NCBI RefSeq assembly: GCF_037975245.1
Contig: NC_092570.1
Coordinates: 4,310,001 to 4,374,000 of the forward strand
Length of the DNA: 64,000 nt
Source of the DNA: Apostichopus japonicus
Taxonomy: Eukaryota; Echinodermata; Holothuroidea; Aspidochirotida; Stichopodidae
Reading direction: 5' to 3'
Shown here: positions 16,064 to 60,679 of the stretch, in pieces
How positions within the stretch are numbered: position 1 is the stretch's first letter
Layout: every line of letters starts with the position of its first letter
Program-made: the position numbers and the translations under genes
The notes under the pieces: model-generated
What the model was told of the DNA's origin: nothing
The model's database searches: none
Seen by the model: only the letters and a program-made list of their open reading frames with translations

Positions 16064-19000
16064 TCAGAGTTTCTTAGTTGTTGAGGGTCCGAGGGTAAGA
16101 CTCCTCAGCTGTTTGGGGGCGAGAGGTTGCCTTCTCATCGGTGACAGTGCCTGTGGGAAGAGAAAAAACAAAAGTTTATGCTGCAGTAACCAGCCAACGA
16201 CAAAATTCTGAAAATGGATTGTAGAGAGGCACTGGATAAAAAGTAAAAACATTGACTGAAATAAAATATTAATTTAATTAATTTGATAGATAAAAATGCC
16301 AAAATATAAATAATTCATAACAACTCGCGATAGCAGTTTTGGTATAAATTTCTCTATGCACCATGTCCCTACAAGGAAGAAAAACTAATTTCTACTGTAG
16401 ATAAACTGTTGTAACACATACAAGATGAGTTTTGCAATAATGGACGTAGCTTTTCGTAGGCAACGGGTTGAAATTAATGACTCGAGTCAATGACACTTGC
16501 TCCCAATCATCGGTGAATTGGTGATGTTTACTGTGGACGCTTGTGCCTAATTTATGTTTTACCACTGATACGTGCGACATTCAGTGCAGAAACTCGGCAA
16601 ACTACAAGAGAATCCAATGCGAGGAATAATGTTCAAAAGATTTCTGTAGCATTTTCTATGGCTCGGAATTTCCACTCTTATCAAATTCTGCGATCGTTTT
16701 GTAGAAAACAATAATAATCCATCTTTGTTGCACTTTAACAGTTAGTTTTGCAAAGCTTTTTGCTGATCAGAATATTTACTGAAGTGGCTTGGACCATAAC
16801 AAAGTTCTCTGCTAGTATTTTTACCTTCAGTGTCATGGTACTTCCCAATCTCTTGTTTATCCTCCCCAGTTGCTGTGGTGTTATTTTGTCTCCTGTCACT
16901 ATGGGGCTGAAGACAGTGGACACGCTGGACACGGCTCGGTTGACAGACCTCCGAGGGGTCTTGTTGAAAGAGAATGTCCTTCCGACCTTCTTGGTGGCTT
17001 TTTTAGCAGCTCTGTCAATAAGATAAATGAAGTCCACGAATGAAATGCCTACAATTTTCATTTCCGATCTGCCATTAGAAATTGGCTACGATCACGATCT
17101 TGACGTTTGGGTTTTTATTGGGGGGGGGGCTTAAACAAGTTTTACTGAATGCATTGATTCCATCTTTTATATTTTTGACACTAATATAGAATTTACAAAT
17201 GCAGGAGATAAACAACAGTAATGAAGCAGCACATGAGAGTTTATTTAAATAAAAAATAAAAGTAAAAATAAATTAAAAATGATGTAATTTAATCAAAAAC
17301 TCATAAGGAAAAAGGTGGATTACGCAATATATCAACTAAAAATGAAACAAGAAAAAACAAGTTTAATAGAACTGACTGTGGTGTCAGGAAAGGCTTAATG
17401 AAGCCCTAAATTTCAACTTGATATATTGCAATGTTTACAATAAATTTTGATACTTTAAGTTTTGAACTGAGACTGTACTGTGTGTTGCAAATCAGACATT
17501 TCTTGGAGGGACTGGGAACAAATGAAAACCGTGCAAGACATTTACTCTCAAATATTCGCATACCCCAAATGGATAACAATGACTGTATTGTTGTCACACT
17601 CACCTGACCGCTTTGTTTATTGTTCCCTGTTCGTAATTTGTCTTTGTTATTTCCAACTCTTCAGGGTCGATGGTACAAAGAAAATTATCCTAAAATGAAA
17701 CATAAGACATAAGACAGTAGAAATATTGGAAATTAGAATGATAAAAAAAAACTATGCATATCTCATGAATATTTATTCCATTCTGCTATAAGGCTACCAC
17801 TGTGATTGGTCAAATTCAAATCACAACTTGGTAAAAAAGCAAGACATACTTGAAAATGGATTAAAGACTGATTGACTGAGAGCTAAAAATACAAATATGC
17901 AGAAGAAAAAACCGCAAACGTTTGACACTGACCACGTCGGTTTTACAAGTCGCCGTGGCGATGTGATGACAGAGGGTTTTTAACCAGTCCGCCTTGGCTT
18001 CATTTCCGATCGTGAGAGCGAACATGTAGAGGCGATCGAGACGAGAAGAACTCTCCATTAGCGGTTTGCAGAGGAGTGCGAATGCACTGTGGCACGCTGT
18101 AGAGAGGGGGGAAAGGATATAAAATTACATCAAAATGCAGAGGAGTGCGAATGCACTGTGACACGCTGTAGAGAGGGGGAAAGGATACAAAATTACATCA
18201 AAATGCAGAGGAGTGCGAATGCACTGTGGCACGCTGTAGAGAGGGGGAAAGGATATAGAATGAAATCAAAATGCAGAGGAGTGCGAATGCACTGTGACAC
18301 GCTGTAGAGAGGGGGAAAGGATACAAAATTACATCAAAATGCAGAGGAGTGCGAATGCACTGTGACACGCTGTAGAGAGGGGGAAAGGATACAAAATTAC
18401 ATCAAAATGCAGAGGAGTGCGAATGCACTGTGACACGCTGTAGAGAGGGGGAAAGGATACAAAATTACATCAAAATGCAGAGGAGTGCGAATGCACTGTG
18501 ACACGCTGTAGAGAGGGGGAAAGGATACAAAATTACATCAAAATGCAGAGGAGTGCGAATGCACTGTGACACGCTGTAGAGAGGGGGAAAGGATACAAAA
18601 TTACATCAAAATGCAGAGGAGTGCGAATGCACTGTGACACGCTGTAGAGAGGGGGAAAGGATACAAAATTACATCAAAATGCAGAGGAGTGCGAATGCAC
18701 TGTGACACGCTGTAGAGAGGGGGAAAGGATATAAAATGAAATCAATATGAAAACTGGTTAGGCTGAATATTTTGAGCAGTGTATGATTCTTAGTGTTACT
18801 TACAAGATATGGAAGGTAAGGGTTGTTATTTATCCATTTCATTTTTCCATCGACTTTGCATTAATATTCAATGTTTGATTTTAGTGACTCACACATGGGA
18901 ATCGGGTAGCAGACGATACCCGAGTTTTGAAACTTGAGACGTACAGAAAAATTGTGTGGACGTCTGTTACCAATGGTGTGTGCGACATCAAACTTTTGTA

Positions 19001-22000
19001 TTGGTTTTACTGGTTGATAAAATGTATATCTGTCGAGAAACTGTTCATTTGATTGAAAAGACATTTCAGGAGCAAAGTGGCTTTTGTTGGGCTAAGATAA
19101 AGGACAATTTTCAATTTGAAAGTGTGAAACTTTCTTTGTGCTTACTGTTGAGGGCATACTTTGTTTTAAGAATCAGTTCAATTTTTGACATCAAAATCCA
19201 AAGGAAATGAAACATTGTGCAAAGAAAATTCATGAAAATCACCACATCATTTTTTTTTTTTTATTGACGACAACGAAACAGCCCTTTCTTTGCACTTACT
19301 CTCAGTTTCGTTGACATCCAAGACCCTTCTGATATGTGAAAGCGGTAACAGCTCGATGTGTTTGTGAGTCTTCTGACTCGGTTTTGTGGTCGTGTGTGGA
19401 CTTTTATGGGAAGATGCATACTTACTCCTCTTCTTGCATATCTGAGAAAGATAAAAGACCAAATGAAAAAATTAAATCCCTCAAATTCCCCCTAAAAAAT
19501 TAAAATACTGGGAGCTTTAATTCAAAGTTTTTCATGATTATATCCTTCCCCAAATTTAAATGCATAACAAAGTCTTGCCTCCAGTGTGTCTGAAAACAGT
19601 ATCATAGAGACGCTACTGCCCTTCTCGGTGAAGTTATCTCCTTTCCCTGTATGGCTGTCGGCCAGCTCTATAGCTTCGATGCGCTGAATGAAAGTTCTGT
19701 GGGCGGAGAGTAAGTCCGCTGGGACGCCCTCTATATCGTTGATGATGTCAAACAATTGGGTACGGCACTCTGCCTTCCTCCTGTCCTCGTTGATGTGTCT
19801 ATTTAAAGAAGAAGGAAAAATAAAGGTTATTATTTGGCAAGGTTACAAATGAAGAAGACTTAAAAAAAAATATGACAATTAATTTTTTTGCACGAAATGT
19901 GAAAATTTTCAATCATACCAAGGTGTAGTAGGATGGAGCTCCGTAAGGAAAGGTAATTCATGTGAAGTATGTTATGTAACATAACATCTATACATACTAT
20001 CTAAACATCATAACATACTATCACCAGTGTGGACTCATGAAACTAACCAGGAATGGGGGGGAGGAGGAGGGAGAGGGGGGCAGCATCAGAGCCCGGACTG
20101 TACTATTGAACATCTCTTCACTTTTCGTCTAGTTTATACTTTAGTAGTTTCTATTTAAACCAAGGAATACTGGCCTGGTTTAAACTGTACTCATTTCTGC
20201 CACATAAAAGTTGAGGTTAAGATTTCTCAAATTTGTACTCCAAAAAATTGTACTAAAAATTGTCTGTACTTACTCTGCGACACCCTTCAAGGACTCTAAA
20301 GCCTTCTCCAAATGTTTGTGATCTGGATGACTGGTGTCTGTTCTCTTGAATAAATCTGACCGAGAAAATGACAAGAAATGAAAATATATTAAAACAGAAA
20401 AAAAATTCATACTTTATATAGATCACCCAAACTTAATATTCATCTGTTCTCCTTTAGAAATCAATTGACCACTTTCATTGATCAACAACTCTTCCTTTTT
20501 GCTAAACACTAGGTAATTCTGGATTCATACACAATCAGAAAATAAGGTGAGTATTTTACTGTAGTTGTATGATAATCCTGTCGGCCATGTTTGCAAAATG
20601 TTTAGACATTGCCTCTATTAGTTGATACTAAACTTGAATCATTCAGCTAAGAACTTCAACCCTCTGAGATTTTATTTTATTAAGAAAGTTTATCAACCCA
20701 AACCACTCACACAAAAAAAATGGCTTTGGGATTCTTTTTCCATTCTAATACGTTTTTTAACCCAAAACACTCACAAAAACCTGCTTTAGGATTCTTGTTT
20801 TTAATCAGTTTTTTAACCAAGAACCCTCACAAAAACATACTTTAGGATTCTTGTTTTTAATCAGTTTTTTAACCCAAAACCCTCACAAAACCTGCTTTCG
20901 TATAAGATCGGTGACTTTGTCAGCATCGTACAACGTTACCAAAGACTAACCTGAAAGGAGAAGGATCATGCTTGGCAGTCTCTGGACTGGACGAATCAAG
21001 AGTTCTGTAAGACCCTGCCTCCCGCACTCTGGTTTCGACTGACAAATCTGTGTGGTTGAACAAAAAAGCCATGAAAAGAGAGAAGAAATTTGTTATGAAA
21101 TACCGGCATGTAAAGCGCAAGAAAAGATAAGTGATTGTTGCTCAATGTGATATAGAGACAATATCAGTTGAAGACATGTTGCTTCTGTTTTCGATTTGTG
21201 GAAGGGGAAAAGGGGAAGAATGTTGTACACAAAAATTTATGAGAAACAGAAATTCAGAATAAATATAATATTGTGATGTAAAATGCACTTAGCATTTTTC
21301 TAATACACTTTGACTATGTGAGTGCAGGTATTCTATGTTTGGAATAAGACCACTGCCTGACCCTCAAGACTGACCCTCAATGCCTGACCCTGAAGGCATA
21401 TGTCCTAACATATTCCCCCCCCCCCCGACAGGTCATTTTCGATATGGTAACAGTCTACATGTTCTGATTCAAAGCAGTGGTTGGCAAACTGTCAGGCCCA
21501 CCGCCCAGGATCTTCCGTGAGAACTGCTTCATGACCTAAAAGAAACCCCATTTCTGTCAGAATCGAACTCCATCGACAAGCTCTGAAAAATGTACATAAA
21601 ATTTATCGGCATCTTGGAAAAATCCAGAGATTCACAGAGAAATTTTTGTGAACTGCTTTTAGGTCAGGCCCCATATTTTGCAGATAGTCGGACAACTGTA
21701 TAATCCCTACCACACCCACATACACAATCGGGCATGGGTATAACTCGGTGATTAAAATAAGCCATCTTACCTTCAAGAAAGCGTGAAACCTTGGTAATTC
21801 CTTGTCACATTTCTGTATCGTGGACTTTGTCATTTCAAAGTAATTTACAAATGGAGGGTAGGCTTCTCTCATATCGTTAGCCTGAAAGGTTGACAAAATT
21901 TAAAAAAGATCAGAAAAGACGTTTCATCCAAACCGGTTGTACGTATCCTAGATCTACCGTGACATTTCAAGGATTCATAATGTTGTTGGTAAGCTTGATT

Positions 22001-25000
22001 AACTCTTCAATGAGACAAAATTTCACAGTTTGTTTCAACTTTTTCTCCCTGCTCCAGTCGTCGAATAACGTTTAGCGATGTTCAAAATTCCATGGACGAG
22101 TCTCGCTGAAGAACATGACCTTGCTTCCTGAATGTAGGTAACGTACACATGGAAGGTATTACGTAGTGCAAAATGAGAATCACGTTAATGTCACGTAACA
22201 AATGTTCTGTCGCCGATCAATAAATGTACACCCTCGTCAATATTTTACAATTTATCAATCACTTTCTACCCTCTAGTTACTTACGTGTTTGACGATTATC
22301 GCGCCGATGCTCTTCTCCTCCGAGAAGTTACGTAAGAGCTCCTCGAGGTCGACCTTTAACCTCTGATGCACGGCGCAGATGTCTGGTATTTTACTGAAGA
22401 TGGTTTTGATGTCTCCTTTGGCTAAGATAGGTCCTCCTGTCTGCTCTTGTTCCAGTGGTTCTTTGAAAACCTGTCCAGAAAGAACAGGGGTCGTTGCACA
22501 ATTTAACGTTGTCGTTATGTTGCAACAGCGTTACTTCCGCTATTGCTCATCTGTGTCTGAATTTTGCCAATTTACAAAGTCAATCTTTGCAAAAATCTTG
22601 ATTTAATCATCTACAGCTCTGACAATATCGCTCAGTTTTCTGTTGCTAGATATATCCATAAATGTTATTACAAATAAATAAAGTCATATCACTTCTATAA
22701 ATATTAAGGAAACACACTATCATCTTAAAAAAGAATTTACCTACCGATGAAAATAGGTGACAGCAAGCTTTCAATTTGATCTTCAAACAATTCAGTGGTG
22801 CCAGCAGATCATCTCTTCAAAACATCCCATCATTTCTTTGCCACCGCACTCATCCCCCCTTCCCTTCCTGTTACATTGCCTCTGCTCCACCTCCCTCAAT
22901 TCCCCTCTCACCCCCCTCCCCCTTCCTCAATTCCCCTCTTTCCTCTCCTCCCACTGTAGGCCTTGTGAGAAGCTTTAGTGTAACATGCATTTTCTATCAT
23001 CTTCTATTTCGAAAACACAACTGACACTGATATTTTATCATTTCCTCATCGTACTGACAATCAATCCAACTCATAACACCATTCTTCTTCTTCTTCATCC
23101 AAAGCACAAACTATTGTAGCTAAAAATATCATGAAAACTACAGGTGTCTATAAATAGCTCACTGTTAAAATGGTTTCCAGAATCTTCACATAGTTTGTCT
23201 CTGTCTGCAGCAATTCCATAGCAGTCATGTGACGCTTGGAGGTCGGCATGATCGACGTCTGCATGAGCGAAACATCCTGGGCCGTTCTACTCGGGGTGGA
23301 CAACTCTGGGGTTTCTAAGAAGGCGAGAAGACAGAGGTTAGATTGAAAAGGCCGAACTGTGCAATGAAAAACTTTGACTAGACAGTCAAACAAACTAGTA
23401 TTGTTCGTTTTTGTTTCAATGATCACCTTGGATTGCTGGTTTTGCACCAGCTTTACTTAACATGTTGAATATCCATCAACATAAAGATATAAGGATTGAG
23501 AGCAGGCAAGGCTATGTTTTTCAATTACTAATTTTTGGTGATGCTTGTAGCAGTTCTGCTCCCGTCACATCAAATGATGAAATTCAATGTTTCGATGGTT
23601 TATTTCACCCAAAAATTATCAGAAGTATTTCAACTGAAATTTTGATTTATAATTGTTGTTGATAATTTTACCAAAATGTAACAAAGGTTTTTCTCAAAAG
23701 ATGATTGCAAGATAACCTCCCAGAGATTTTCAGCAAACGACTGTGTCGTCAGCGAGCTGAGTCATCAGTCCGTTCAATCCTAAAAGAAATTATTTTCTCG
23801 ACACATACAAGAAGCAGGGCAAGAAATGTCATTTTCATTCACAATTTTAGTGTAGATTTGAAATTAAACAGGACTACCCAACCTAATAACTGGCATTTTT
23901 GTAAGAATTTAATGGATCTAAATTTTTACAAAAACAAAAAGAAGATTTGCTTAGCTTTTTTTGTTTAATTTTACTAACCTGCAAAGAAGGTATTGTCTGG
24001 TGTTTGGGTCGCATCCAGGATAGAAGAACAGGACACAGACATGGCATCCCTGGCACTTGACCGTCTCTTCCGAGGGGGAAGAGGAGTGTCCTGTTGGTCA
24101 GCGGTCTGGGATAAAGCCGCAATGCTGTCCTTCAGTCGCCTTTTTCTACCGCTATGGATGCTTGTAGGTGTCATCTTGAAGGCTCTGGGAGTCTTTGCCT
24201 AGATGGATTCAAAAAATGCTGTTATGATGGGAAAAAATGTGTTCTTGTCTTGTAGCGTATCAGCTAATTATGCAAAAAGACACCAAATATCGTGTGAGTG
24301 ACTGTGGCGGGCATTCCCCAAAACAGAAGCAAAAAAAGCCACAAAAAAAAAAAGACAGACATTAATACAATACTGGTGACAGAAAAAAATGATGGGAAAG
24401 AAATTACTCACCATCTCAAATTTGTAGATGTGTTCATCAGCACATGCATCAATCTGAATACTTGCCCAGAACCACTGAAAATTAAAGATGAAAAACAGGT
24501 TTGTTTTTATTTATTTATGTTTTTTATTCAAATAAAACTACTGGGTACTTGCTTCAAAGACTCACTTCAAAGCATGAAATTGTGTCCCAACAATTTTTAG
24601 GAGTTTATAAAAAGATGACTTTTACAGGTAATAAGGCAAACTATTTCTAATTTTGTTACAACTATTTTCTCACCACCTTAATGTGTATGCTATATTTTAG
24701 AGCTATTTAAATTATTCACGGTAGAATGATAAAAATGTCTCCTCACCTCCTGTTTGACAATACGAGGACAGCAAATATCCGTTGTTAATTCCTTGATCAC
24801 GTTTTCGTCTATGACGAGGTGGGTGCAGGTCGGGTCACCGACCGGTGAAAACGAACCACCTGCGAGAAGAATCGCAGAATGAGACTTTATAAAGTTGTCA
24901 GGTAAAGAAAATATTGACATTAGTTCAATTCAGGATTTGGATGCATTAATTACCGAGGGAGTTGATTGTTTTATTTCATTGAATATAATTGCACTGACAT

Positions 25001-28000
25001 TGTTTTAGAATAACGACCTTGTTTACTTTCACCCAGAGAACATGAAATCCAAATGAGAACTCTAAAAGGGTTTCCACCGATGTGACTTTTTACGTATAAG
25101 TTTTACAATGTACCAACGATGTTATCTAACTTGGTATGATGAGTGCACTTGTTACACGGTTGCAAGATATATTCATAAAATTGTGTTCAACTTCAAGTCT
25201 ACAATACTAATACCTGGATAAAGTATGCCAATGCTGCGTTTGGGTTTTGTAGAGAGATACAGAAAATTATATTGAAAACTATTAAGACATACAATTTCCC
25301 ACCAAGAGTATAAACTTTTTTTTTGTTACATGAGCAAAGTATTAAAATTGAGATTAAAGACAACTTTCTTGTCATTTTTTAAATTTTTGTTTTAAATTTT
25401 CTCCTTTTTGATATTAAAGTTCCAACCTTGTGATGTGGTCTGGTCTTCCATATGTTTCTTTTCATCTTCTGTGAAACCGTGGAAGCTGAGAACCAAGTTG
25501 AAGAAGGGCGCAACTTTATACCGCGTGATCTGTTAATGAATCAAACAAAGATTGTTCCAGATTGTTACTGTGAGGACATCTGTTCATGTAAACCAATTCT
25601 ACGTCAAGCATGCTAGGGAATAATTCATATTTGTAAACAAGTAACAGAAAACCGACTGGGAAATTTTAGACAATGGGAAAGAGCAGAGAAATTAATGGTT
25701 AGAACGGGATTGGAATGAGTGACCTCTACCAACTGAGCTATCCAGACCTTAGTTGGTGGTGCTCCCTATAAAGATGCCATTTCTTCCTGGGGGCGCTATT
25801 CAGAAGCCACAGAACCTTGTATACCATCTAACCAGGGATCACACCCCAGTTTGATTTGATACAACTTAGAAAACGGCAGGGACATGATTTCATGAGAAAT
25901 TTGGCGTTGTTATATATGTATGTATATATATATATATATATATATAAAATCATATATGAGGTCATATGAGGTCACTGTTTCGATATCCTGTTCCAGCCAT
26001 AGACTTCTTTGTTCTTATCCAGGGAATAACAATCATGATTATTCCCTGTCATAAATTAATCCAATATGAAAGCAAAATAGCTGTTTAAATACAGTAGCAT
26101 CTATTTGACGACAGGGTTGAATGAAAGCACAGTGGAATACAGTCAGCTCCATTATTGCATGTTTGCCAAGCTTTCCGTTCCTTCCTTTTTTTTTTTTTTC
26201 ATTTTCCATGTTTTTCACATAACTGTAACATGAAAGCTCAGATGTTGGCAAAATACTTCTCAAAAAGTTTGATTTTTAGAGAAAACCTTCTTAAGCAGAG
26301 AAAGGTAATGAGCTCCTTTTTTTGTATCAATTTATCCATCGTCTTGAGCCTTAACCATTCAGTTGTTGACCATTCTTGTTCTAATAAAATGGTATCTTGC
26401 AGTTGTATGTGTATATATATATATATACTGTGTATATAAATTGGTATCTATATTTATAGATACCAAGATCTTTCCATTGCTCTTTGTCTAATCATTTCCT
26501 TACCAGTTCCTCATCTGACCCAAGGTGGCCAAGATCTGCCCTTCTTTCCCAGATATGTTCAACCCAATCTCGTTTTACGATGGGTTTGCCTAGACTGACC
26601 GCATACTATAGAAAAGGGAAACATGAATGACAATAATTAAGGTAAACAAATGATTTGTTCTGCAAAATGATATGAAAGTAGGAAACATTTACAAATAACC
26701 TACATAGATTGAAAATCAATTGTTTCAATCTAATTTCTATATAATTTCTACCAAAAAAAAAATTGTTGCTATTTTCTCAAAATTTATCTGGTAAATTTCT
26801 TTATATAACTTGCAGACATAAATTTAATCCATACATGTAAATTGTTTTTTTCTTTAATTCATTCTTTGGCTTTAAAAATGTTAATGTCAGGAGCATGAAG
26901 TACCAATTTTTCTTTAATGGGATCATAAAATATTGAATTTCTCTTCCCCTTTCTCGCTAGATTTTTGAGTCTGGACATCACCCTCTCCGCATACGCCCTC
27001 AAATGTGTAAGTTCTGCTCTTTTTGGGCAGTAACATACGTACACAGGAGGTAGGCAAGTATTCAAGTCAATAATGACAGCTTTCATACAGAAGTACATCA
27101 TGCCAACAGTTGTGAGTACATCAATAAAATTTTGTCTTTAAAACATTTTGCAAGGACAATATAAAACTTAAAACAGCTCTGTGTGTTCAATGCAAATACA
27201 ATGCGTTTGTTTGCTGTTTCTGTTTTGAAACTATTTGCATTTGTGACATATGGGACATTTCAGAGGCTTTAACCATTACATAGATCTCGTAACTGAAATA
27301 GGTAACACAGACAAAAATACGGACAAAAACACAGACAAAAACACAGATTAAAACTTTTGTCACTTTTATATGAATGAGGTTGTATCTTAACTGATATACA
27401 CTGTGACGTATGGGACCAGAGATAGTTGCTTGATTTTTAATATAAAATTGTGCTCAAAACTCACTGACTGTTAAAGCATTGAAGCAAAACTTCCACTAAA
27501 TCACTAGAATGTACCTTACATAACATAGCCATCATGTGGCACAGTATCAACAAAACATATTTTATCTAATTTTTATGTAATTTACATGAAATATGAAAGA
27601 AACAAAGTGTGACGTATGGGACATGTGGCGTATCCATGGGACATTTTTTCCATGAGGAAATGTGGCTTGAAAAGTCATGTTTTTGTCTAAATTTTTGTGT
27701 CAAATAATAATGTTTGGTGCAAAGAAAGACAACTTTAGCACTGAAACTGATTTTGTAAAAAAAATTGTCTGCATGGTTTTAGTGCAAAATAGAAGGGAAA
27801 AAAAAATATATCATTCAAGAACAAATTTGTCAACTAATCACACATTTCTAGCTCAAAAACAACAACATTAAGTTATCTATTTCATTTTTTTTTTTTACGA
27901 AAATATTTTAAGGTTGAGCTGTATCTCGAAACACTACCATTCAATTTTTAACCTAGATCCAAGATACCTATACTACCAGTGCTGAAAAAAAAAATCAAAA

Positions 28001-31000
28001 TATACATCTTGGCCAACTCCCTACAAGTAACATCATTTCTGTATCATTGGCTTTGTTTTCATGTGATATCATCAAAGCAATTTCTTCTACTTAGCTATCT
28101 GGATGGTTGCAATTGGAAGAGTCAACCATCTTCTGAATGCTTCGAGTGATTATGAACTGATGGTTGTGGGCATGGTAAAATCTGGTGCACTATTAACTTT
28201 GTGGGCAGAGAGAGTTGATGGTTGCTGCAATATTTGTCAAAGTATTCACGTTTCATAAAAGTGTGTATCTTTAAGAGACAAAAAACAAGAAGCGGGTCTG
28301 GTCAGGTTTTCATGGGTCGCAATATTCTTTAAACTTTTTTTTGTCTTGGCAAAGACAGTATTAAAACCAACAACTTTCTGTGTGTTCATTGCAAACACTT
28401 GCATTTTCTCACACTATTTATTTTTCTTTCAAGTTACAGTTGCGCAAACAGCGATAAAGTTTCTGTTTACTATAGAAAATCAATTGTTTTACAGGATTCT
28501 ATTAAGGCATTGTTTTGATAAAAACTTCCTGCACATTCAAGTTCAATTATTAACAGGTGAATTTGAAATTGAACTACTTTTTTAGAAAGCGAGTCTGTTG
28601 TTTCATGGGTTGTGCCTCTTTCTCATCAAGTTATGCCCGGGTAACGAAAGGTTCCTAGACAGGTCTGAGACTTACAAACCAGAGAAAACACAGAGTTTCA
28701 TGAAAGGAAGTTTATACAAATCGCAGCTTTACATACTGCCCCACGGTTGATATACAAAACAAAATGGCCGTTATATCCACTTTCACGACAACCAGCATTG
28801 TGATATAATGTATGAAATAAATCAGTTACTGCTTTTTTTTTCAATTTAATTCAAAGTGATTATATAACAGTAGAAAAATATTTAACTGTATAAGGGGATG
28901 TTTATTTTTTGTTGGTAAGATATTTTGAACAAGTGACTTCATCATCGAAATTCAATTTTTGATAGTAATTGCTGATGCGTCCTATAAAATTGATCAGTGA
29001 AAAAAAAAAAAAAAAAAATTATGTGTCGGTCAAGTGTACTATTTTATCGAGATAAAAAAAGGAGAATTTTCTTATCTCACCAGATGTTCAAACCAGCCAT
29101 CAATATTTGAGTTTCAGAAGTATTTCTGTTTACTTACTCTACATTCACACACCCCAATTTCATATTGAGATGAAAAATGATCAATTGCTGCATTGGATTT
29201 ATTTGATTGGTGTTATTAATTAAGACTGACATTAATATAATACAAGATCTCCTTGTCCTTAATGCCAATAAAAAGTGAATTGTTTTAACCAGATTCACCT
29301 GTCGAACAACTTCGACCGTTTTTTTCTCTTTCCATAATTTTTCTTTTTGTATCTTACCCTGTACTTTTGACCACTGGTAGAGTTAGCTACCAGATGAGTT
29401 ACGCTTGATGTCATGTCCTTGCGGATGCTGCCCCCCATGTGATGTACCAACTCTCCCAATCTCTTCAACTGTTCCTTCCGGGTGAATCCCGTAAAGCAGA
29501 CCACAATCGTGGTCATCTGCTGGCAAAATAGCGGCCTGTTGCAACATGGTAGAGCCTGGCATATGAAAGGGAAGGGGGAAAAAAATGTTTAAAAAAATTG
29601 ATGTGATGTTGACATGAACATCCATCTTTGAGCATTGTGCAAAAGTCACAACGATTTACATCTTTGTGTAGAATTTATTGTTACCGATAGAGACTGCTGG
29701 GTCCGCTATATCCTGAGAGGGCGCTATCTTCTTTGCGGTTGGTAAAGTATTTTTCATTTGCTTAATTTCGAAACAAATAGCCAACATACTAAAAGTCAAA
29801 ACACACACACGGTGAAATAAGTCATAATATTCACCAGATTTATTTATCTGAGTATAATTTTTTTTTACCCTGAATTACGTAGTTTTCTCATCCAAAATTT
29901 TTACATTTCGATGACCTGAAGTATTAATTCTGGGGTATTTCTGAAAATGAATTTTCTCAGAGGACCATAGAAAAAAAACACTGGTTTGAGAAATGAGCCT
30001 GAGAGAAGCAAAATATCACTATATATCTATACACCTAAATTGAGGAATGTGCTGGGTAGGCTGATAAGGTGCTAAACTCTAAAGCACTAAGGGTCCGTAT
30101 ACCAGACTAGTGTAAGATTGTTTGTCTTTAATAAATTTTCCCAGGCAAGATCGCAACCTTCGCCAGTCAAAGTCGGCCCGCAGAGGGATGCTGGACACAT
30201 TTGAAAATGTGCTTTGCATTAAACATTCTCTTCACTTGAAATTTTTGTCAGTATCTGTGAATAAATGATTTGTAGCTCTTACAAAGAGAAACAAGAAAAA
30301 GACTGCTTCAGCTCCTTGGCCATAATGACTCGACGTCACTAAATCTTCCGTTGCCAGATGCAAAATTCACAAAATATCGTAAAATTCACATCTTCGTCAT
30401 CTACAAAATGCTACAATAAGGATGTGGATATGACCTGAGGTTGTCAAAACTTTACAGCAATTTTTTTTTAAGCAATCATTCTCAACCACCAGGAGATTAT
30501 TTTTCTATAAAAAGTTCACATATTTGCAAGAAAGAAGACAGTAGGACTGATCTCTTTTACCTAAAAAGTGGCCAGAGTTGATGCAGTCTGTAAAATGACA
30601 CTTACCTCATCTTCTTCGGCTTTCTTTAGAATGATGGGAGGGCCCAGAATGCGAGCACCGTTCACGTGAAGATCCGTAAACTCGTAGCTCTCAAAGTCGT
30701 CGACGACGTGAACAGTCTCGCAGGATCGGTCCTTGAGAAATTCTTTCCCCGTCTCAGAGGACACGTAGGGCATTTTCATTTTCTGAGATTGGAAAAATAG
30801 TAGTTGTGCTTTATAAATGTATGGCAAATGCAAAGTGTAGTAATTTTAGTCCCTATCACAAAGCGTAGTGCAAATTAAGGATTGAGAGGGCCCAATTTTT
30901 TTATTAGAGCGAAGTTAGAAATTGCCTTGAATTTTCATTGTTATGTCAGGGTAGCACGGGTGATTTCTTTGGGGCACGGGTGATTTCTATTGGGCACGGG

Positions 31001-33380
31001 TGACTTCTATGGGGCACATGTTGATTTCTATGTCAGTACAGCAAGTGGTTGGGGCCAAAGATGTTAGATTGGGCCCTCCCACTAACCAGTACTCTATCCA
31101 ATTGACCAGAATTAAGGAGGATATTTCCCCGGAATGTTGAAATGCAAAAATGACCACTGATATGAAATTGGATACTAAATTTTTTTGGTTGCAATTATAA
31201 TATCTTGCCAAAACAAAAAAAACTGTTGTGTCATAAGTACAGTGGAAACCATCTCAACTAGCTCTATACTACAAAATCTGCAGGAAAAAAAATTAAATTG
31301 ATAAAAAACATTTATTTTTTATTGATTAACTGAATCAAACATCTCAGATATTTTGGTACGTAATTACCTTGAGAGCCTTAAGAACGTCATCCCGTCTGGC
31401 GATTTCCCCGACCAAGCAGACTTGAGCATCAAGAGCCATTTCCTCTGAAAAGAACACAGAGAGTGGACGTACACTGTTTAACTGAAATTGAAACGTGATA
31501 CTATGTATGTATGTACGTATGTATGTAGGTCTGTATTTTAGATCCTCCTGCAAGCAGGAACTGGCGATGATCTAAAAAGAACTGTCAACGATACTTTCAA
31601 TTTCGATACTCTGAAAACAGTCGACCTTGCTGCTTGTTTCAAAACTGTGGCAATGCTCCTATGCCACATGGAGAAAAGCGCAGGGCTATGGCATATACAT
31701 GTGTATATGCCATAGAGCATACAGATATGTCTACATATATGTATTTATACAGTTGCACGGAGGAGAATTGAACTTGACACTTATGTCTGCCATTCAGCTA
31801 ATATTTGCTTCCATTTGTCATGTTTCTTGCAATTATATTCCCAAAACATCACAGAGCTGCTGTACTTGTAACAAACTGGTATTATATTTTTGTCAAGAAA
31901 GTTACGCCAGCCTCCCCCCCCCCCCCCCGAAGCCCAACTTACAGTACACACATCATGACCAACAAATATAAATGAGTTGTTGAAAAAAGAAAACTTGTAA
32001 AAAGGATAAAATGTTCACAAAAAACTGTGTCTCTACAGCTGTAGATATACCTTGAGGTCTCAACTAATCTTACCAAGAATTTGACCATTTTGCCAAACTT
32101 TCTCTTTCCTATATTAAAGCCTTACATTCAAATTGAAATGATTTTGTAACCGCAAGTCTGAATATGTTCATATAAATTATGTATGTAATATAAAATAATA
32201 CTGTAGTGTGTTCATTTACAGAAATAAGTTCATTGAAAGAGAATAAATAAGACAAAATTTTAACTAAAGAAAGAGTTATTTAGTAAATTTAAACAAAACA
32301 GTTTAATCTATACAAGATATATAGAGAACGTGTGAATGAAAAGAAAAGTTATGAAAATTGTTAGAGATTTTACGTGCTGGGAGTCTAGAAAGATGTGATA
32401 CAATTAACATTGATTCATGCCAAATGTAAACAACTGCTTGTCTTTGTTTTGTTGAGTAGATGTAAATGAAATATTGAATTTGTGCTAACAACGGCCAGCA
32501 TAAGTAGGAAATCATTTAAACTGTCAAAAGTGTTCAACAAAACCTTTAAAGCGGGAAAATGAATTAGTAAATTTGGCGATAAAATGAATCAATGGATTAG
32601 AAAATATCATGAGTATGAATTATGAAGAAAATATAAACAAAGGAAGATTGGATGGATTCAGCAGCTTATGAATTTGAATATGTTCCTTCGTAGAGCAAAA
32701 AGTATCAATCCAAGTGATAGGCTTTACAATCATTGTGGAAGGCTGTGGCTTGAGGATTAACCTGGCACTTTTTCTCATCTCTTAATGTTAATAATATGAC
32801 TACTGTAGTTATAAGCAACTGTGGAATGAACTGGAAGACTCAAGTTACCATGTAAACGTTCCAAATTAAATCTGTTTTGGAGGTTTTTTTTATTGAAACT
32901 CTATATACTGTAGTCATGCTTTAAAACCATGGGGAATAGCACTGTACATCTGGTTTTTCCATGCCAGCACCTAAAATAGTGCATCGATTCATTTAAAAAA
33001 AAATTCAAACCAAGAAATTTTGAGGTCTATTAAACACTTACACACTATCATTCTTTCAAAGAAAGAGGTTATAATTAATTCAGCAAAGGTTGTTAAAATT
33101 TGGTTAAAATTACAGTGTTCTGATTCTTGTGCTTAATACAGCATTTACTGTTTAGTCTTCGAAAAGTTGTGTTTTTAAATAGACACCGTCTGCTTCCCGT
33201 GTTAGCATTTAAAACCGAGTAGCTACTGTATGTACGGTACATTAACTGACACACCTGGGGACCATAAAAATGACACATTCCTATATCCAGCTGCTTACCT
33301 TCCATGCAGGTTTCCTGAGAGGACGACAACCATGCTACCGAAGTTGAAGAACAACTTGTATCAGCTAAGGAGCAAGACAT
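16064..33380 (-). CDS. ECT2: ECT2, RhoGEF of cytokinesis (complete, 20 coding exons, 882 aa)
   Basis: Exons in transcript order: 33299-33380, 31368-31444, 30606-30782, 29358-29555, 26504-26605, 25427-25529, 24747-24859, 24412-24474, 23979-24198, 23163-23314, 22285-22470, 21771-21881, 20951-21047, 20274-20355, 19579-19798, 19300-19441, 17933-18096, 17604-17689, 16825-17011, 16064-16150. All phases join; the total is 2649 nt including TGA. An in-frame TAG lies two codons before the ATG. Domains: BRCT0 about 28-112; BRCT1 about 125-212 with the phosphopeptide-pocket Thr (CFTGF) and Lys (GQKYR); BRCT2 about 213-305; S region 306-378 with basic NLS clusters (RKRRLK, PPRKRR); DH about 395-590 including LLIRPVQRLPS; PH about 600-760; tail with the Cdk1-type site FNKTPRR. 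ECT2 activates RhoA, Rac and Cdc42; recruited by centralspindlin, it starts furrowing, with the BRCTs autoinhibitory. Every known functional block is intact. Oddities: a GC-AG intron and a repeated splice acceptor, listed separately. The length is close to vertebrate ECT2 (about 880-915). Confidence 0.97.
18067..18747 (-). repeat. 68-bp minisatellite, 10 units, each with the ECT2 exon 17 acceptor and its first 30 coding nt
   Basis: Unit starts on the + strand are 18067, 18136, 18204, 18272, 18340, 18408, 18476, 18544, 18612 and 18680. The first unit is 69 bp, the rest 68 bp, with very few differences among them. Read on the - strand, each unit holds a pyrimidine tract CTTTCCCCCTCTCTACAG, then the exon start CGTGYCACAGTGCATTCGC to CTCTGCA (30 nt). 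Only unit 1 (18067-18135, last in transcription order) continues into the real exon body. The other nine lie in the upstream intron as duplicate acceptors. Reading from a duplicate acceptor in the correct phase gives a stop: eight of nine meet TAA at the 14th codon. Confidence 0.96.
19442..19578 (-). other. GC-AG intron of ECT2 (137 bp)
   Basis: The exon ending ...TCAGACACACTGGAG is followed by GCAAGA, not GT. The acceptor is TTTCTCAG, before ATATGCAAGAAG. Using this GC donor keeps phase 0 and gives a PH-domain sequence that aligns with ECT2 orthologues (...DTLE then ICKKRSKY...). GAG/GCAAGA matches the usual context of functional GC donors. The next GT downstream would break the frame. Confidence 0.85.
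20692..20905. repeat. 56-bp minisatellite, about 3.5 units, in an ECT2 intron
   Basis: Units share AACCCAAAACCCTCACAAAA, then a TTTAGGATTCTTG and TTTTTAATCAG block. The CTCAC motif recurs near 20706, 20770, 20826 and 20882, giving one diverged 64-bp unit followed by 56-bp units. The array stops about 45 bp before the low-coordinate end (donor side) of the 20951-21047 exon. Confidence 0.75.
25660..25870 (-). mobile_element. tRNA-derived SINE fragment in an ECT2 intron
   Basis: On the - strand, GGTCTGGATAGCTCAGTTGG followed by TAGAG reproduces a tRNA D-arm/A-box. A degraded B-box side, AATCCCGTTCTAACC, follows after an internal deletion. The upstream part in that orientation includes GATAGCGCCCCCAGGAAG-like unique SINE body sequence. 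Ends were not resolved. Confidence 0.5.
25917..25947. repeat. (AT)n microsatellite
   Basis: Alternating AT run, just left of a short direct repeat ATCATATATGAGGTCATATGAGGTCA, within an ECT2 intron. Confidence 0.7.
27242..27640. repeat. Three dispersed copies of a TGACGTATGGGAC motif in an ECT2 intron
   Basis: Copies occur at 27242-27259 (GTGACATATGGGACATTT), 27403-27416 (GTGACGTATGGGAC) and 27608-27622 (GTGACGTATGGGACA), the last followed by a partial fourth, GTGGCGTATCCATGGGAC. The spacing is not regular. Function unknown. Confidence 0.5.
31686..31715. repeat. Perfect 13-bp inverted repeat with a 4-bp loop
   Basis: CTATGGCATATAC and GTATATGCCATAG are separated by ATGT, forming a hairpin able to extrude. 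It is in ECT2 intron 1. Confidence 0.85.
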
Positions 33381-38300: not shown

Positions 38301-39181
38301 GCCATGAAAGTAAAGATTAATAATTAAGTAAATAATAAGTAAAGAATAATCAGTCTGTCAGACTGTCATAGAAGACGTCTATACTAATGCACGTGTCTTC
38401 CCCTGTTTCTTACTTACAAAGAAATGTTGTTCATTCAAAATCGTAGATATCATAGGAAAAAAAAAAACCTTTATCTTTATTTCAAAATTTGCTGGTCTAG
38501 TTTCCCTTTCATTTTGCCTTTCTTCCCTTTCTTTTTTTTAATATATTTTTTATATATAATTAGGCCTAGTTATAATCATGAAAACTCTGTAAAGTATTCA
38601 ATTTTCATCGTACAAACTTAGGCATTCTCGTGTAAATAGTTAATATATTATTGCCGTATTAGAAATGTTAAATAAATAATGGTTATTGGTAATAAATTAA
38701 TCACTGCTATATATGGCACCAATGGGCTTTAGTAGTATAGTTGTATATGCCGTCACGTAAATGAAGTCTATCGATGATTCAGTAGCTCAGTAACACACGT
38801 GTACAAGAGTATTTTTTATGATGTTGCGTCGTTTTTCATAAAAATAAAAAAAATTGTTTAATAATAAACGGTTCGGCATTGGCAGGCTAAAAGTCTGCTG
38901 CTTGGTATACACAGCCATACAAGAGACTTTAGAGAGAAAAAAAAATAGTGAAAAAAAAAAATAATAATACAAATTTTTAAAAAAGAGGGAAATTTGAAGT
39001 CTTACAATAGTTTTGGAGATCGATACGTTGCTATCAAGTTCTACGTGAACCATTTTGTTCTTTGTCGCGATCATACCTGAACGATTTTTTTTTTTTTACA
39101 AATTCATTTCTATTACTTCTACGCTTTGTGACTTTCAAGCTGTGTAAATGATCCAGAGTCATTCTGTGAACAACTTTAAAA
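35352..39181. other. Region between divergent ECT2 and FAM20B-like copy 1, no gene seen
   Basis: AT-rich with many short TACAGTA-type stretches. A CRE-type palindrome TGACGTCA is at 37489-37496 and an (ATT/ATG)n tract at 37711-37772. There is a G-run at 37923-37936. Promoters for one or both flanking genes should be here but cannot be placed from sequence alone. Confidence 0.4.
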
Positions 39182-46031
<6,850 letters not shown>

Positions 46032-46151: not shown

Positions 46152-46440
46152 GAGAGCGTGGTGGCCAATTGGTTAAGGCGTCGGACTCGTGATCCAATGA
46201 TTGCTGGTTCGATTCCTGCCTAGTTCTTTACGTTGTGTCCTTGGGCAAGATGCTTTATCTCACAAGGGTTAAATGGGTACATGTGAGGTAACTTGTCATT
46301 GGGCGCAGTATATATGACTGCTGCCGACTGAAGGGATTATCTCTGGGACGTTATCTTTGACCAGGGGTAATATAACGTATGTAAAGCGCTTTGAGGCTTA
46401 TCGCTGGTATAGAGCGCTATATAAGAGTAAATATTATTAT
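46152..46440 (+). mobile_element. tRNA-derived SINE
   Basis: The tRNA-like head has an A-box (GTGGCCAATTGGTTAAGGCG) and a perfect B-box GGTTCGATTCC at 46206-46216. A body with GTGTCCTTGGGCAAGATGCTT follows, a block common to V-type and related SINEs. The 3' end has GCTTTGAGG and AGAGCGCTATATAAG and finishes in an ATT-rich tail, resembling CR1/L2-type LINE ends that would supply its mobility. It lies just downstream of FAM20B-like copy 1. Confidence 0.88.
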
Positions 46441-48570: not shown

Positions 48571-48948
48571 AAAAAAAATCACCCAGGAAAGAACCTGGGC
48601 ACGAAAACCAAACTACCGAACGACTAAACCGCTCTCAACCCCAGTGCCCTTGCATCGAGACTGTGACTGAGTGATCATCGTCAGGTGTGTATCACGATTC
48701 CCATCGAAAGGAAACAGATACTACACATGATTTTAGCCAAAAGGCCGAGTAGATATCCCTTTTATTATGAAAAGTCACCCAGGAAAGAACCTGGGCACGA
48801 AAACCAAACTACCGAACGACTGATCCGCTCTCAATCCCAGTCCCCTTGTATCGAGACTGTGACTGTGTGATCATCGTCGGGTGTGTATCACCATTCCACT
48901 CGAAAGGGAACAGATACTACACATGATCTAAGCCAAAAGGCCGAGTAG
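48571..48948 (-). mobile_element. Tandem dimer of a U2 snRNA-headed SINE
   Basis: Two copies, 196 bp apart. On the - strand each begins CTACTCGGCCTTTTGGCT and continues to GTGTAGTATCTG, matching the 5' end of U2 snRNA with only a few differences and with the branch-site-pairing GTAGTA intact. Similarity to U2 ends after about 45 nt. A roughly 140-nt body follows, ending in a hairpin CCCAGG-TTCTTT-CCTGGG and TGACTTTTC. Related 3' pieces (reverse of GTCACCCAGGA) occur at 50612-50650 and 56916-56945, so it is a dispersed family. An hAT MITE is inserted at its 5' end. Confidence 0.75.
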
Positions 48949-50758: not shown

Positions 50759-51047
50759 GCCTGAACACGAAACATAAAATAATTTGATCCACTTCCAATC
50801 ATATATGCCCCCCCCCCCTAAAATCGAAGCTGTATTGTATTTGTAACACCTGTGTGAAGAATTGATTCTCTTCCGTTGGCCGGTATAGTCATTTTATTTA
50901 CATATGTATATTCGTTGTGAAATCGTTGAAGATCAATGTCACCATGCATGTTAGGTTTTTTTTGGGTTTTAAATCGAATTGAAACAAACAAGTTCCACGT
51001 ACTTTGGTCTGCAGATTGATTCCAATTTTGAAGTTACTTGCAGCAAA

Positions 51048-60679
<9,632 letters not shown>

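What the first reader, a model, noticed from the sequence alone, without database searches (positions are those of the whole stretch)
18067..18747. Minisatellite that has multiplied a splice acceptor and the start of its exon ten-fold inside ECT2
Seen: ten near-identical 68-bp units, each with the full pyrimidine tract, AG and first 30 coding nt of the ECT2 PH-domain exon. Only the most downstream unit joins the rest of the exon. The nine duplicates come first in the transcript, and splicing to any of them gives a premature stop (eight at TAA in the 14th codon). The spliceosome must therefore skip nine equal sites, or the array diverts some transcripts to decay. Array length could then tune the dose of a key cytokinesis regulator and vary between individuals. 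The high unit identity points to recent expansion or homogenisation.
Basis: partly seen in the sequence, partly recalled or inferred. Interest (0 to 1): 0.85.

Follow-up and report, generated by a model that had tools for sequence, protein, structure and literature searches.

The report
Tenfold-repeated splice acceptor in ECT2
In what appears to be the sea cucumber Apostichopus japonicus, a short DNA repeat has copied the start of one exon of the cell-division gene ECT2 ten times over; it looks like a case of the splice-site repeats known from lancelets as 'mirages', which are thought not to disturb splicing.

Summary
Window 18067-18747, minus strand, holds ten 68-bp units (the last is 69), each with 38 nt of intron end (pyrimidine tract, AG) and the first 30 nt of an ECT2 PH-domain exon. 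Only the last unit runs into the rest of the exon. Splicing to any of the nine others gives a premature stop: eight at TAA in codon 14, one at codon 35. ECT2 identity is secure. The genome fits the HiFi-read assembly of Apostichopus japonicus, so a 681-bp assembly error is unlikely. The kind is known: amphioxus 'mirage' minisatellites duplicate intron-exon boundaries, and Adh3 and globin data suggest that they do not disturb splicing. In human ABCA7 a VNTR carrying a splice donor goes with length-dependent exon skipping, though use of its decoy donor did not depend on length. My reading: a recent, internally homogenised mirage, tolerated because exon definition favours the acceptor nearest the downstream donor. 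Dose tuning by array length is possible but unsupported. I found no earlier array called a mirage outside cephalochordates in ten paper searches.

The parts
18067..18747 (-). Minisatellite array: ten units (nine of 68 bp, last of 69), each carrying the last 38-39 nt of the intron and the first 30 nt of ECT2 exon 15 (exon numbers are mine, for the exons found)
18680..18747 (-). Unit 1 (first in the transcript): differs from the main type at -37, -31, -29 and -23; the only unit with a CTAAC branch-point candidate (49 nt upstream of its exon start, just outside the unit)
18136..18679 (-). Units 2-9: seven identical units (2-7, 9) and one divergent unit (8, 18204-18271) like unit 1 at three positions of the intronic part and like unit 10 in the exonic part
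18067..18135 (-). Unit 10 (69 bp), the only one that continues into the exon; first exonic base 18096
17933..18096 (-). ECT2 PH-domain exon (164 nt), donor GTG|gtcagt
   Evidence: protein match to PDB 6l30 and Pfam ECT2_PH
19300..19441 (-). Upstream ECT2 exon (142 nt), donor GAGA|gtaagt; joins exon 15 in phase 1
17604..17689 (-). Downstream ECT2 exon (86 nt), after an intron of 243 nt
16825..31445 (-). ECT2 gene as far as modelled (17 exons placed; the exon or exons expected between 29358 and 25529 not located)

Best explanation
A 'mirage'-type minisatellite. A stretch of about 68 bp across the acceptor of ECT2 exon 15 was duplicated, then multiplied by unequal exchange or slippage, with recent homogenisation of most inner units (copy number and sequence shown; mechanism inferred). 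In the pre-mRNA nine decoy acceptors precede the real one. Exon definition should make the last acceptor win: it alone lies 164 nt from the downstream donor, in the size range of this gene's exons, and it alone is followed directly by the exon body; decoy use would give exons of 233-777 nt. Rare decoy transcripts would stop early and be removed by nonsense-mediated decay. The array is then nearly neutral, as suggested for amphioxus mirages (splicing outcome inferred, not shown here).
For: Array anatomy and unit pattern: the edge units differ while seven units are identical, much as described for BflGb6 in amphioxus. The 16 internal exons modelled are 63-220 nt; each of nine decoy exons would be longer than any of them. 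Flanking introns are 1203 nt upstream and 243 nt downstream; in a human survey, near-equal acceptors in the hybrid class LS (147 events) behave as in exon definition, where the sites closest across the exon are favoured (PMC9225289, passages and section 9; that LS means long upstream and short downstream is my reading of the text). GAA/GAG/GGA motifs: 0 in the 30 duplicated exonic nt, 7 in the remaining 134 nt (crude count). Decoy stops lie 192-736 nt upstream of the next exon junction in nine of nine cases, which the recalled 50-nt rule would mark for decay. ECT2 is the RhoA activator needed in cytokinesis (start of the PMC4552957 abstract in the listing), so enough correct splicing must occur if this is the only copy: the array and a 220-bp exon probe each matched one place in the genome.
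Against: The real acceptor is the weakest of the ten on the gene's own matrix (3.12 against 4.04-4.48); the matrix is small, since two non-array AGs in the same intron score higher still (5.52, 5.44) and three true acceptors of the gene score lower than 3.12 when left out. The downstream donor on which exon definition would rest is weak: 5.68, third lowest of 17 left-out donor scores. The pyrimidine tract of the real acceptor is predicted less open (unpaired 0.58-0.63) than those of the decoys (0.91-0.96, except unit 1 at 0.72 with 150-nt flanks). CTAAC precedes unit 1 only. In the human survey both groups of 3' sites taken as a whole prefer the upstream site, and long introns on both sides only reduce that preference. 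No transcript was seen.
Confidence: 0.68

Rival explanations
1. Leaky decoy array: a share of transcripts uses upstream acceptors, stops early and decays, so unit number sets ECT2 output and may vary between individuals.
For: Nine of nine decoys give early stops; decoy acceptors score no lower than the real one and are predicted more open; unit 1 has the best-looking branch-point candidate; the downstream donor is weak; upstream 3' sites are preferred overall in a human survey. Precedent: in human ABCA7 a 25-bp VNTR whose first bases are the exon 18 donor goes with lower expression and more exon 19 skipping as it lengthens (PMC5954066, passages).
Against: Adh3 and globin data suggest that amphioxus mirages splice normally. 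In ABCA7 itself retention of one unit, that is use of a decoy donor, stood at about 2% and did not change with length. Decoy exons are longer than any modelled internal ECT2 exon. No data on length variation or transcripts here.
Confidence: 0.17
2. Assembly error: copy number in the record is wrong.
For: Seven units are identical, and an aberrant draft assembly of such an array is on record in amphioxus (PMC3087553 passage).
Against: The genome matches a HiFi assembly with mean read length 14.7 kb at 64x (species by inference); such reads span 681 bp, and unit 8 in the interior is distinct. Copy number in other individuals is open.
Confidence: 0.05
3. Intron birth in progress: decoy acceptors plus the GAT|GTAATT donor-like site make 37-nt microexons that are spliced in.
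For: Eight of the nine decoy acceptors are followed by the donor-like site (score 3.71); the amphioxus globin paper proposes such a route to new introns.
Against: One to eight microexons lead to a stop in eight of eight models; the donor-like site scores below the real donor (7.75) in the same scan.
Confidence: 0.03

Closest known systems
Amphioxus 'mirage' minisatellites (Adh3, globins BflGb6 and BflGb9; troponin C and PGBD5 likened to them)
   Same: Tandem units spanning an intron-exon boundary; BflGb6 likewise repeats the intron 3' end with the 5' part of the next exon; edge units escape homogenisation; the Adh3 unit range of 10-72 bp covers 68.
   Different: Here an echinoderm by mitogenome and assembly statistics; ten units at 97% mean identity against 6 and 3 units at 81-100% in the two BflGb6 haplotypes; a cytokinesis gene; transcripts and length variation not examined.
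ABCA7 intron 18 VNTR (human)
   Same: The repeat begins with a splice site of the adjoining exon, and one isoform retains a single unit by use of a donor inside the array.
   Different: Donor, not acceptor; 25-bp unit, about 12 to 427 copies; exon skipping and expression linked to length; the unit starts at the donor, so it holds no exonic sequence.
Internal tandem repeats at exon-intron boundaries in primate-specific duplicated genes
   Same: Minisatellite expansion altering gene structure, sometimes at the exon-intron boundary (PMC2812944, passages).
   Different: Young paralogues, units of 30 bp on average, half in coding sequence; at boundaries said to form novel introns.

Membership tests
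Mirage minisatellite | Tandem repeat whose unit spans an intron-exon boundary | tested here: met
   38-39 intronic + 30 exonic nt in ten of ten units
Mirage minisatellite | Only the outermost unit is continuous with the real exon | tested here: met
   Unit 10 alone continues into the 164-nt exon
Mirage minisatellite | Inner units homogenised, edges excluded (reported for BflGb6) | tested here: met
   Units 2-7 and 9 identical; units 1 and 10 differ; unit 8 is an inner exception
Mirage minisatellite | Length instability between haplotypes or tissues | not testable with these tools
   One assembly; the array matched one place in it
Mirage minisatellite | Normal mRNA splicing despite the repeats | not testable with these tools
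   No transcript data at hand
Mirage minisatellite | Found in a cephalochordate (where the class was named; not a structural criterion) | tested here: not met
   Mitogenome with AAA read as Asn at conserved places, ND6 on the opposite strand, ND4L-like frame between COX1 and COX2, large rRNA on the same strand as ND1 and ND2; assembly figures fit Apostichopus japonicus
ABCA7-like splice-site VNTR with length-dependent splicing | Unit number correlates with splicing or expression | not testable with these tools
   Needs genotypes and cDNA

The most novel reading that the evidence does not exclude
The array is a natural, variable series of nearly identical competing 3' splice sites in an essential gene: unit number sets the leak into early-stop transcripts and thereby ECT2 level, with heritable and perhaps somatic variation among sea cucumbers.
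Probability: 0.11. Interest if true: 0.75.

Novelty: new member of a known kind. Interest (0 to 1): 0.42.

Why it matters
Ten nearly identical acceptors in a row before one downstream donor are a natural form of the classic splice-site competition experiment (which site wins: nearest the upstream donor, or nearest across the exon?). Because ECT2 should be under strong selection, the answer in this animal bears on how firmly exon definition fixes the site. It also suggests that mirages are not peculiar to lancelets and that minisatellite-rich genomes may hold more of them: the sample here had 17 minisatellites in 220 kb.

Tried and rejected
RNA structure as the discriminator: the array folds better than 20 of 20 shuffles (z -3.24), but accessibility disfavours the real acceptor, so this was dropped as an explanation. 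Microexon use: ends in a stop in eight of eight models. Other mirages in the window: by eye, none of the other arrays overlaps a modelled ECT2 exon boundary; FAM20 exon edges were not modelled. Alitta virens as source (671.2 Mb, 24 scaffolds) came up in a search on genome size and was rejected (listing and passages). The unit core was absent from viral contigs (0 stretches), as expected for an animal gene. Rfam at gathering threshold and ARAGORN found one tRNA in the window and nothing else. Ten paper searches were answered; in two of them only part of the matching papers was listed (20 of 44, 15 of 1,407). No listing or passage that I saw used 'mirage' for a repeat outside cephalochordates, but human repeats at exon-intron boundaries are in print. 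The founding Adh3 paper is not held and was not seen; it is cited through PMC3087553. The troponin C, retinol dehydrogenase and presenilin papers were not looked up.

Full report
What is there. On the minus strand, between the ECT2 exon ending at 19300 and the rest of the exon ending at 17933, ten tandem units fill 18067-18747. Tandem Repeats Finder scores the array 1280 at period 68, ten copies, 97% matches, the highest of 38 rows. Read from the transcript side, each unit is 38 nt of intron (TTTTGATGTAATTTTGTATCCTTTCCCCCTCTCTACAG in the main type) and 30 nt of exon (CGTGTCACAGTGCATTCGCACTCCTCTGCA); the last unit has one more C. Only unit 10 goes on into the exon, 18096-17933.

The gene. The translated exons match human ECT2: PH region and tail at E 2.8e-58 to PDB 6l30 and E 4.5e-44 to Pfam ECT2_PH; the upstream pieces at E 5.1e-133 to 6l30 and 6.9e-54 to 4n40. 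Seventeen exons were placed by anchor peptides; the exon or exons expected between 29358 and 25529 were not found. The phase-1 junction GAGA|CGTGCC gives ...NETETCHSAFALL..., against ...RETEDCHNAFALL... in the human chain, so the acceptor at 18096 is well supported by homology, though no transcript was seen.

Consequences of decoy use. Splicing from 19300 to each of units 1-9 was translated: nine of nine stop early, eight at TAA in the 14th codon, unit 7 at codon 35, because it reads into unit 8, which lacks the TAA. The stop lies 192-736 nt before the next junction. Skipping exon 15 altogether (164 nt) would also shift the frame (arithmetic). Inclusion of one to eight 37-nt microexons ends in a stop in eight of eight models.

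Unit history. Six positions vary (-37, -31, -29, -25, -23, +5), apart from the extra C. Units 2-7 and 9 are identical. Unit 1 has four differences from them, unit 8 five, unit 10 two plus the extra C. Unit 1 should hold the original intron side and unit 10 the original exon side. Unit 8 shares the letters of unit 1 at -31, -29 and -23 and of unit 10 at +5, so it looks like an older type, and the main type a later one that spread (inference). Both edges end in CA (TTTTCA before unit 1, CTCTGCA at the end of unit 10), which would allow a first duplication at 2-bp microhomology; two letters are weak evidence.

Which animal. The genome search placed the window at G000:C10:4310001-4374000 of 671,581,487 bases in 35 contigs. 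Contig 35 has 16,099 bases and reads as a mitogenome: COX1, ND4L, COX2, ATP6, COX3, ND3, ND4, ND5, ND6 on the opposite strand, CYTB, tRNA-Phe, then ND1, ND2 and the large rRNA. The protein names are by eye except ND4, which Pfam confirms; the rRNA is an Rfam match; the small rRNA was not reported by that search, which covered L003 only. AAA reads as Asn at conserved places (compare), as in the echinoderm code; the gene order is the one I recall for sea urchins and sea cucumbers. The published A. japonicus assembly has 671.60 Mb, 34 scaffolds, 23 chromosomes of 18.21 to 46.02 Mb and a scaffold N50 of 29.65 Mb (abstract and passages); here C4 is 29,643,483 and C16 46,036,110. I take the species as A. 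japonicus by inference. Not a perfect fit: the printed scaffold total is 671,643,915, some 62 kb more than here, and the shortest of the 20 large contigs that I saw is 18,957,574. That assembly used HiFi reads of mean length 14.7 kb at 64x, which makes a false 681-bp array unlikely. The array and the 220-bp exon probe each matched one place.

Why correct splicing is likely. The intron before exon 15 is 1203 nt (590 to the first decoy), the one after it 243 nt. A human survey puts the change from intron to exon definition near 250 nt and finds that near-equal acceptors of its class LS mimic exon definition, where sites closest across the exon are favoured (PMC9225289, passages and section 9; the figure was not seen, and the meaning of LS is my reading). 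The 16 internal exons modelled have 63-220 nt, the real exon 164, the decoy exons 233-777. The duplicated 30 nt hold none of the GAA/GAG/GGA motifs counted, the rest of the exon seven in 134 nt. [quoted passage not shown] a second paper says the same of Adh and troponin C and supposes it for PGBD5.

What speaks against. The real acceptor scores lowest of the ten (3.12; decoys 4.04-4.48). The matrix is built from 15 sites and is a blunt tool: two AGs in the unique part of the same intron score 5.52 and 5.44, and three other true acceptors score below 3.12 when left out (0.90, -0.79, -2.60). The downstream donor, GTG|gtcagt, is third lowest of 17 left-out donors (5.68), which weakens the exon-definition argument. 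Local folding leaves the pyrimidine tract of the real acceptor less open than those of the decoys. CTAAC stands only before unit 1, 49 nt from its exon start; units 2-10 have TTGAT at 33-34 nt, and units 8 and 10 one more yUnAy match each. In the human survey both groups of 3' sites as a whole prefer the upstream site, and long introns on both sides only reduce that. So a leak is not excluded.

Background rate. In 22 stretches of 10 kb from the same genome (20 at one position on 20 contigs, 2 beside the window), 17 minisatellites of period 20 or more, at least 2.8 copies and 85% matches covered 8,452 of 220,000 bases. With so many arrays, some overlap with splice sites is expected, limited by selection; whether any of the 17 touches an exon was not tested.

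Known kinds. The structure is that of a mirage: a minisatellite across an intron-exon boundary, named in amphioxus Adh3 and reported in globins, with troponin C and PGBD5 likened to it. In human ABCA7 a VNTR starting with a splice donor goes with lower expression and more exon 19 skipping as it lengthens, while retention of one unit (use of a decoy donor, about 2%) and the exon 18 cryptic acceptor did not change with length. Nothing here is mechanistically new; the setting (an echinoderm, ten units, a cytokinesis gene) did not appear in what I saw of the ten paper searches.

Verdict. Observation confirmed; reading partly supported; new member of a known kind.

Noticed in passing
window 19579 (-): The ECT2 exon ending here is followed by GC instead of GT (CTGGAG|gcaaga), a GC-AG intron of 137 nt in this model.
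   Followed up: partly
window about 39170-46031 and 50973-60679 (+): Two tandem FAM20-like kinase genes, by eye. Of five exon pieces given to Pfam, those at 45783-46031 and 59972-60193 match Fam20C (PF06702) above its cut-off, that at 54547-54819 below it, and two had no match.
   Followed up: partly
window 44821-45268: Adjoining trinucleotide arrays, (TTA) about 73 copies and (ATG) about 77 copies.
   Followed up: no
window 46153-46228 (+): A tRNA-Thr (cgt) gene or pseudogene just after a FAM20-like exon.
   Followed up: no
window 48574-48948: A 196-bp unit repeated 1.9 times.
   Followed up: no
L024 279-2918 and L009 3319-4968: Long minisatellites (29 bp x 91; 83 bp x 20) in sampled stretches of the same genome.
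   Followed up: no
window 18067-18747 (-), within each unit: A short hairpin AGUGC-AUUC-GCACU lies in the exonic part of each unit (read from the folding); its meaning is unknown.
   Followed up: no
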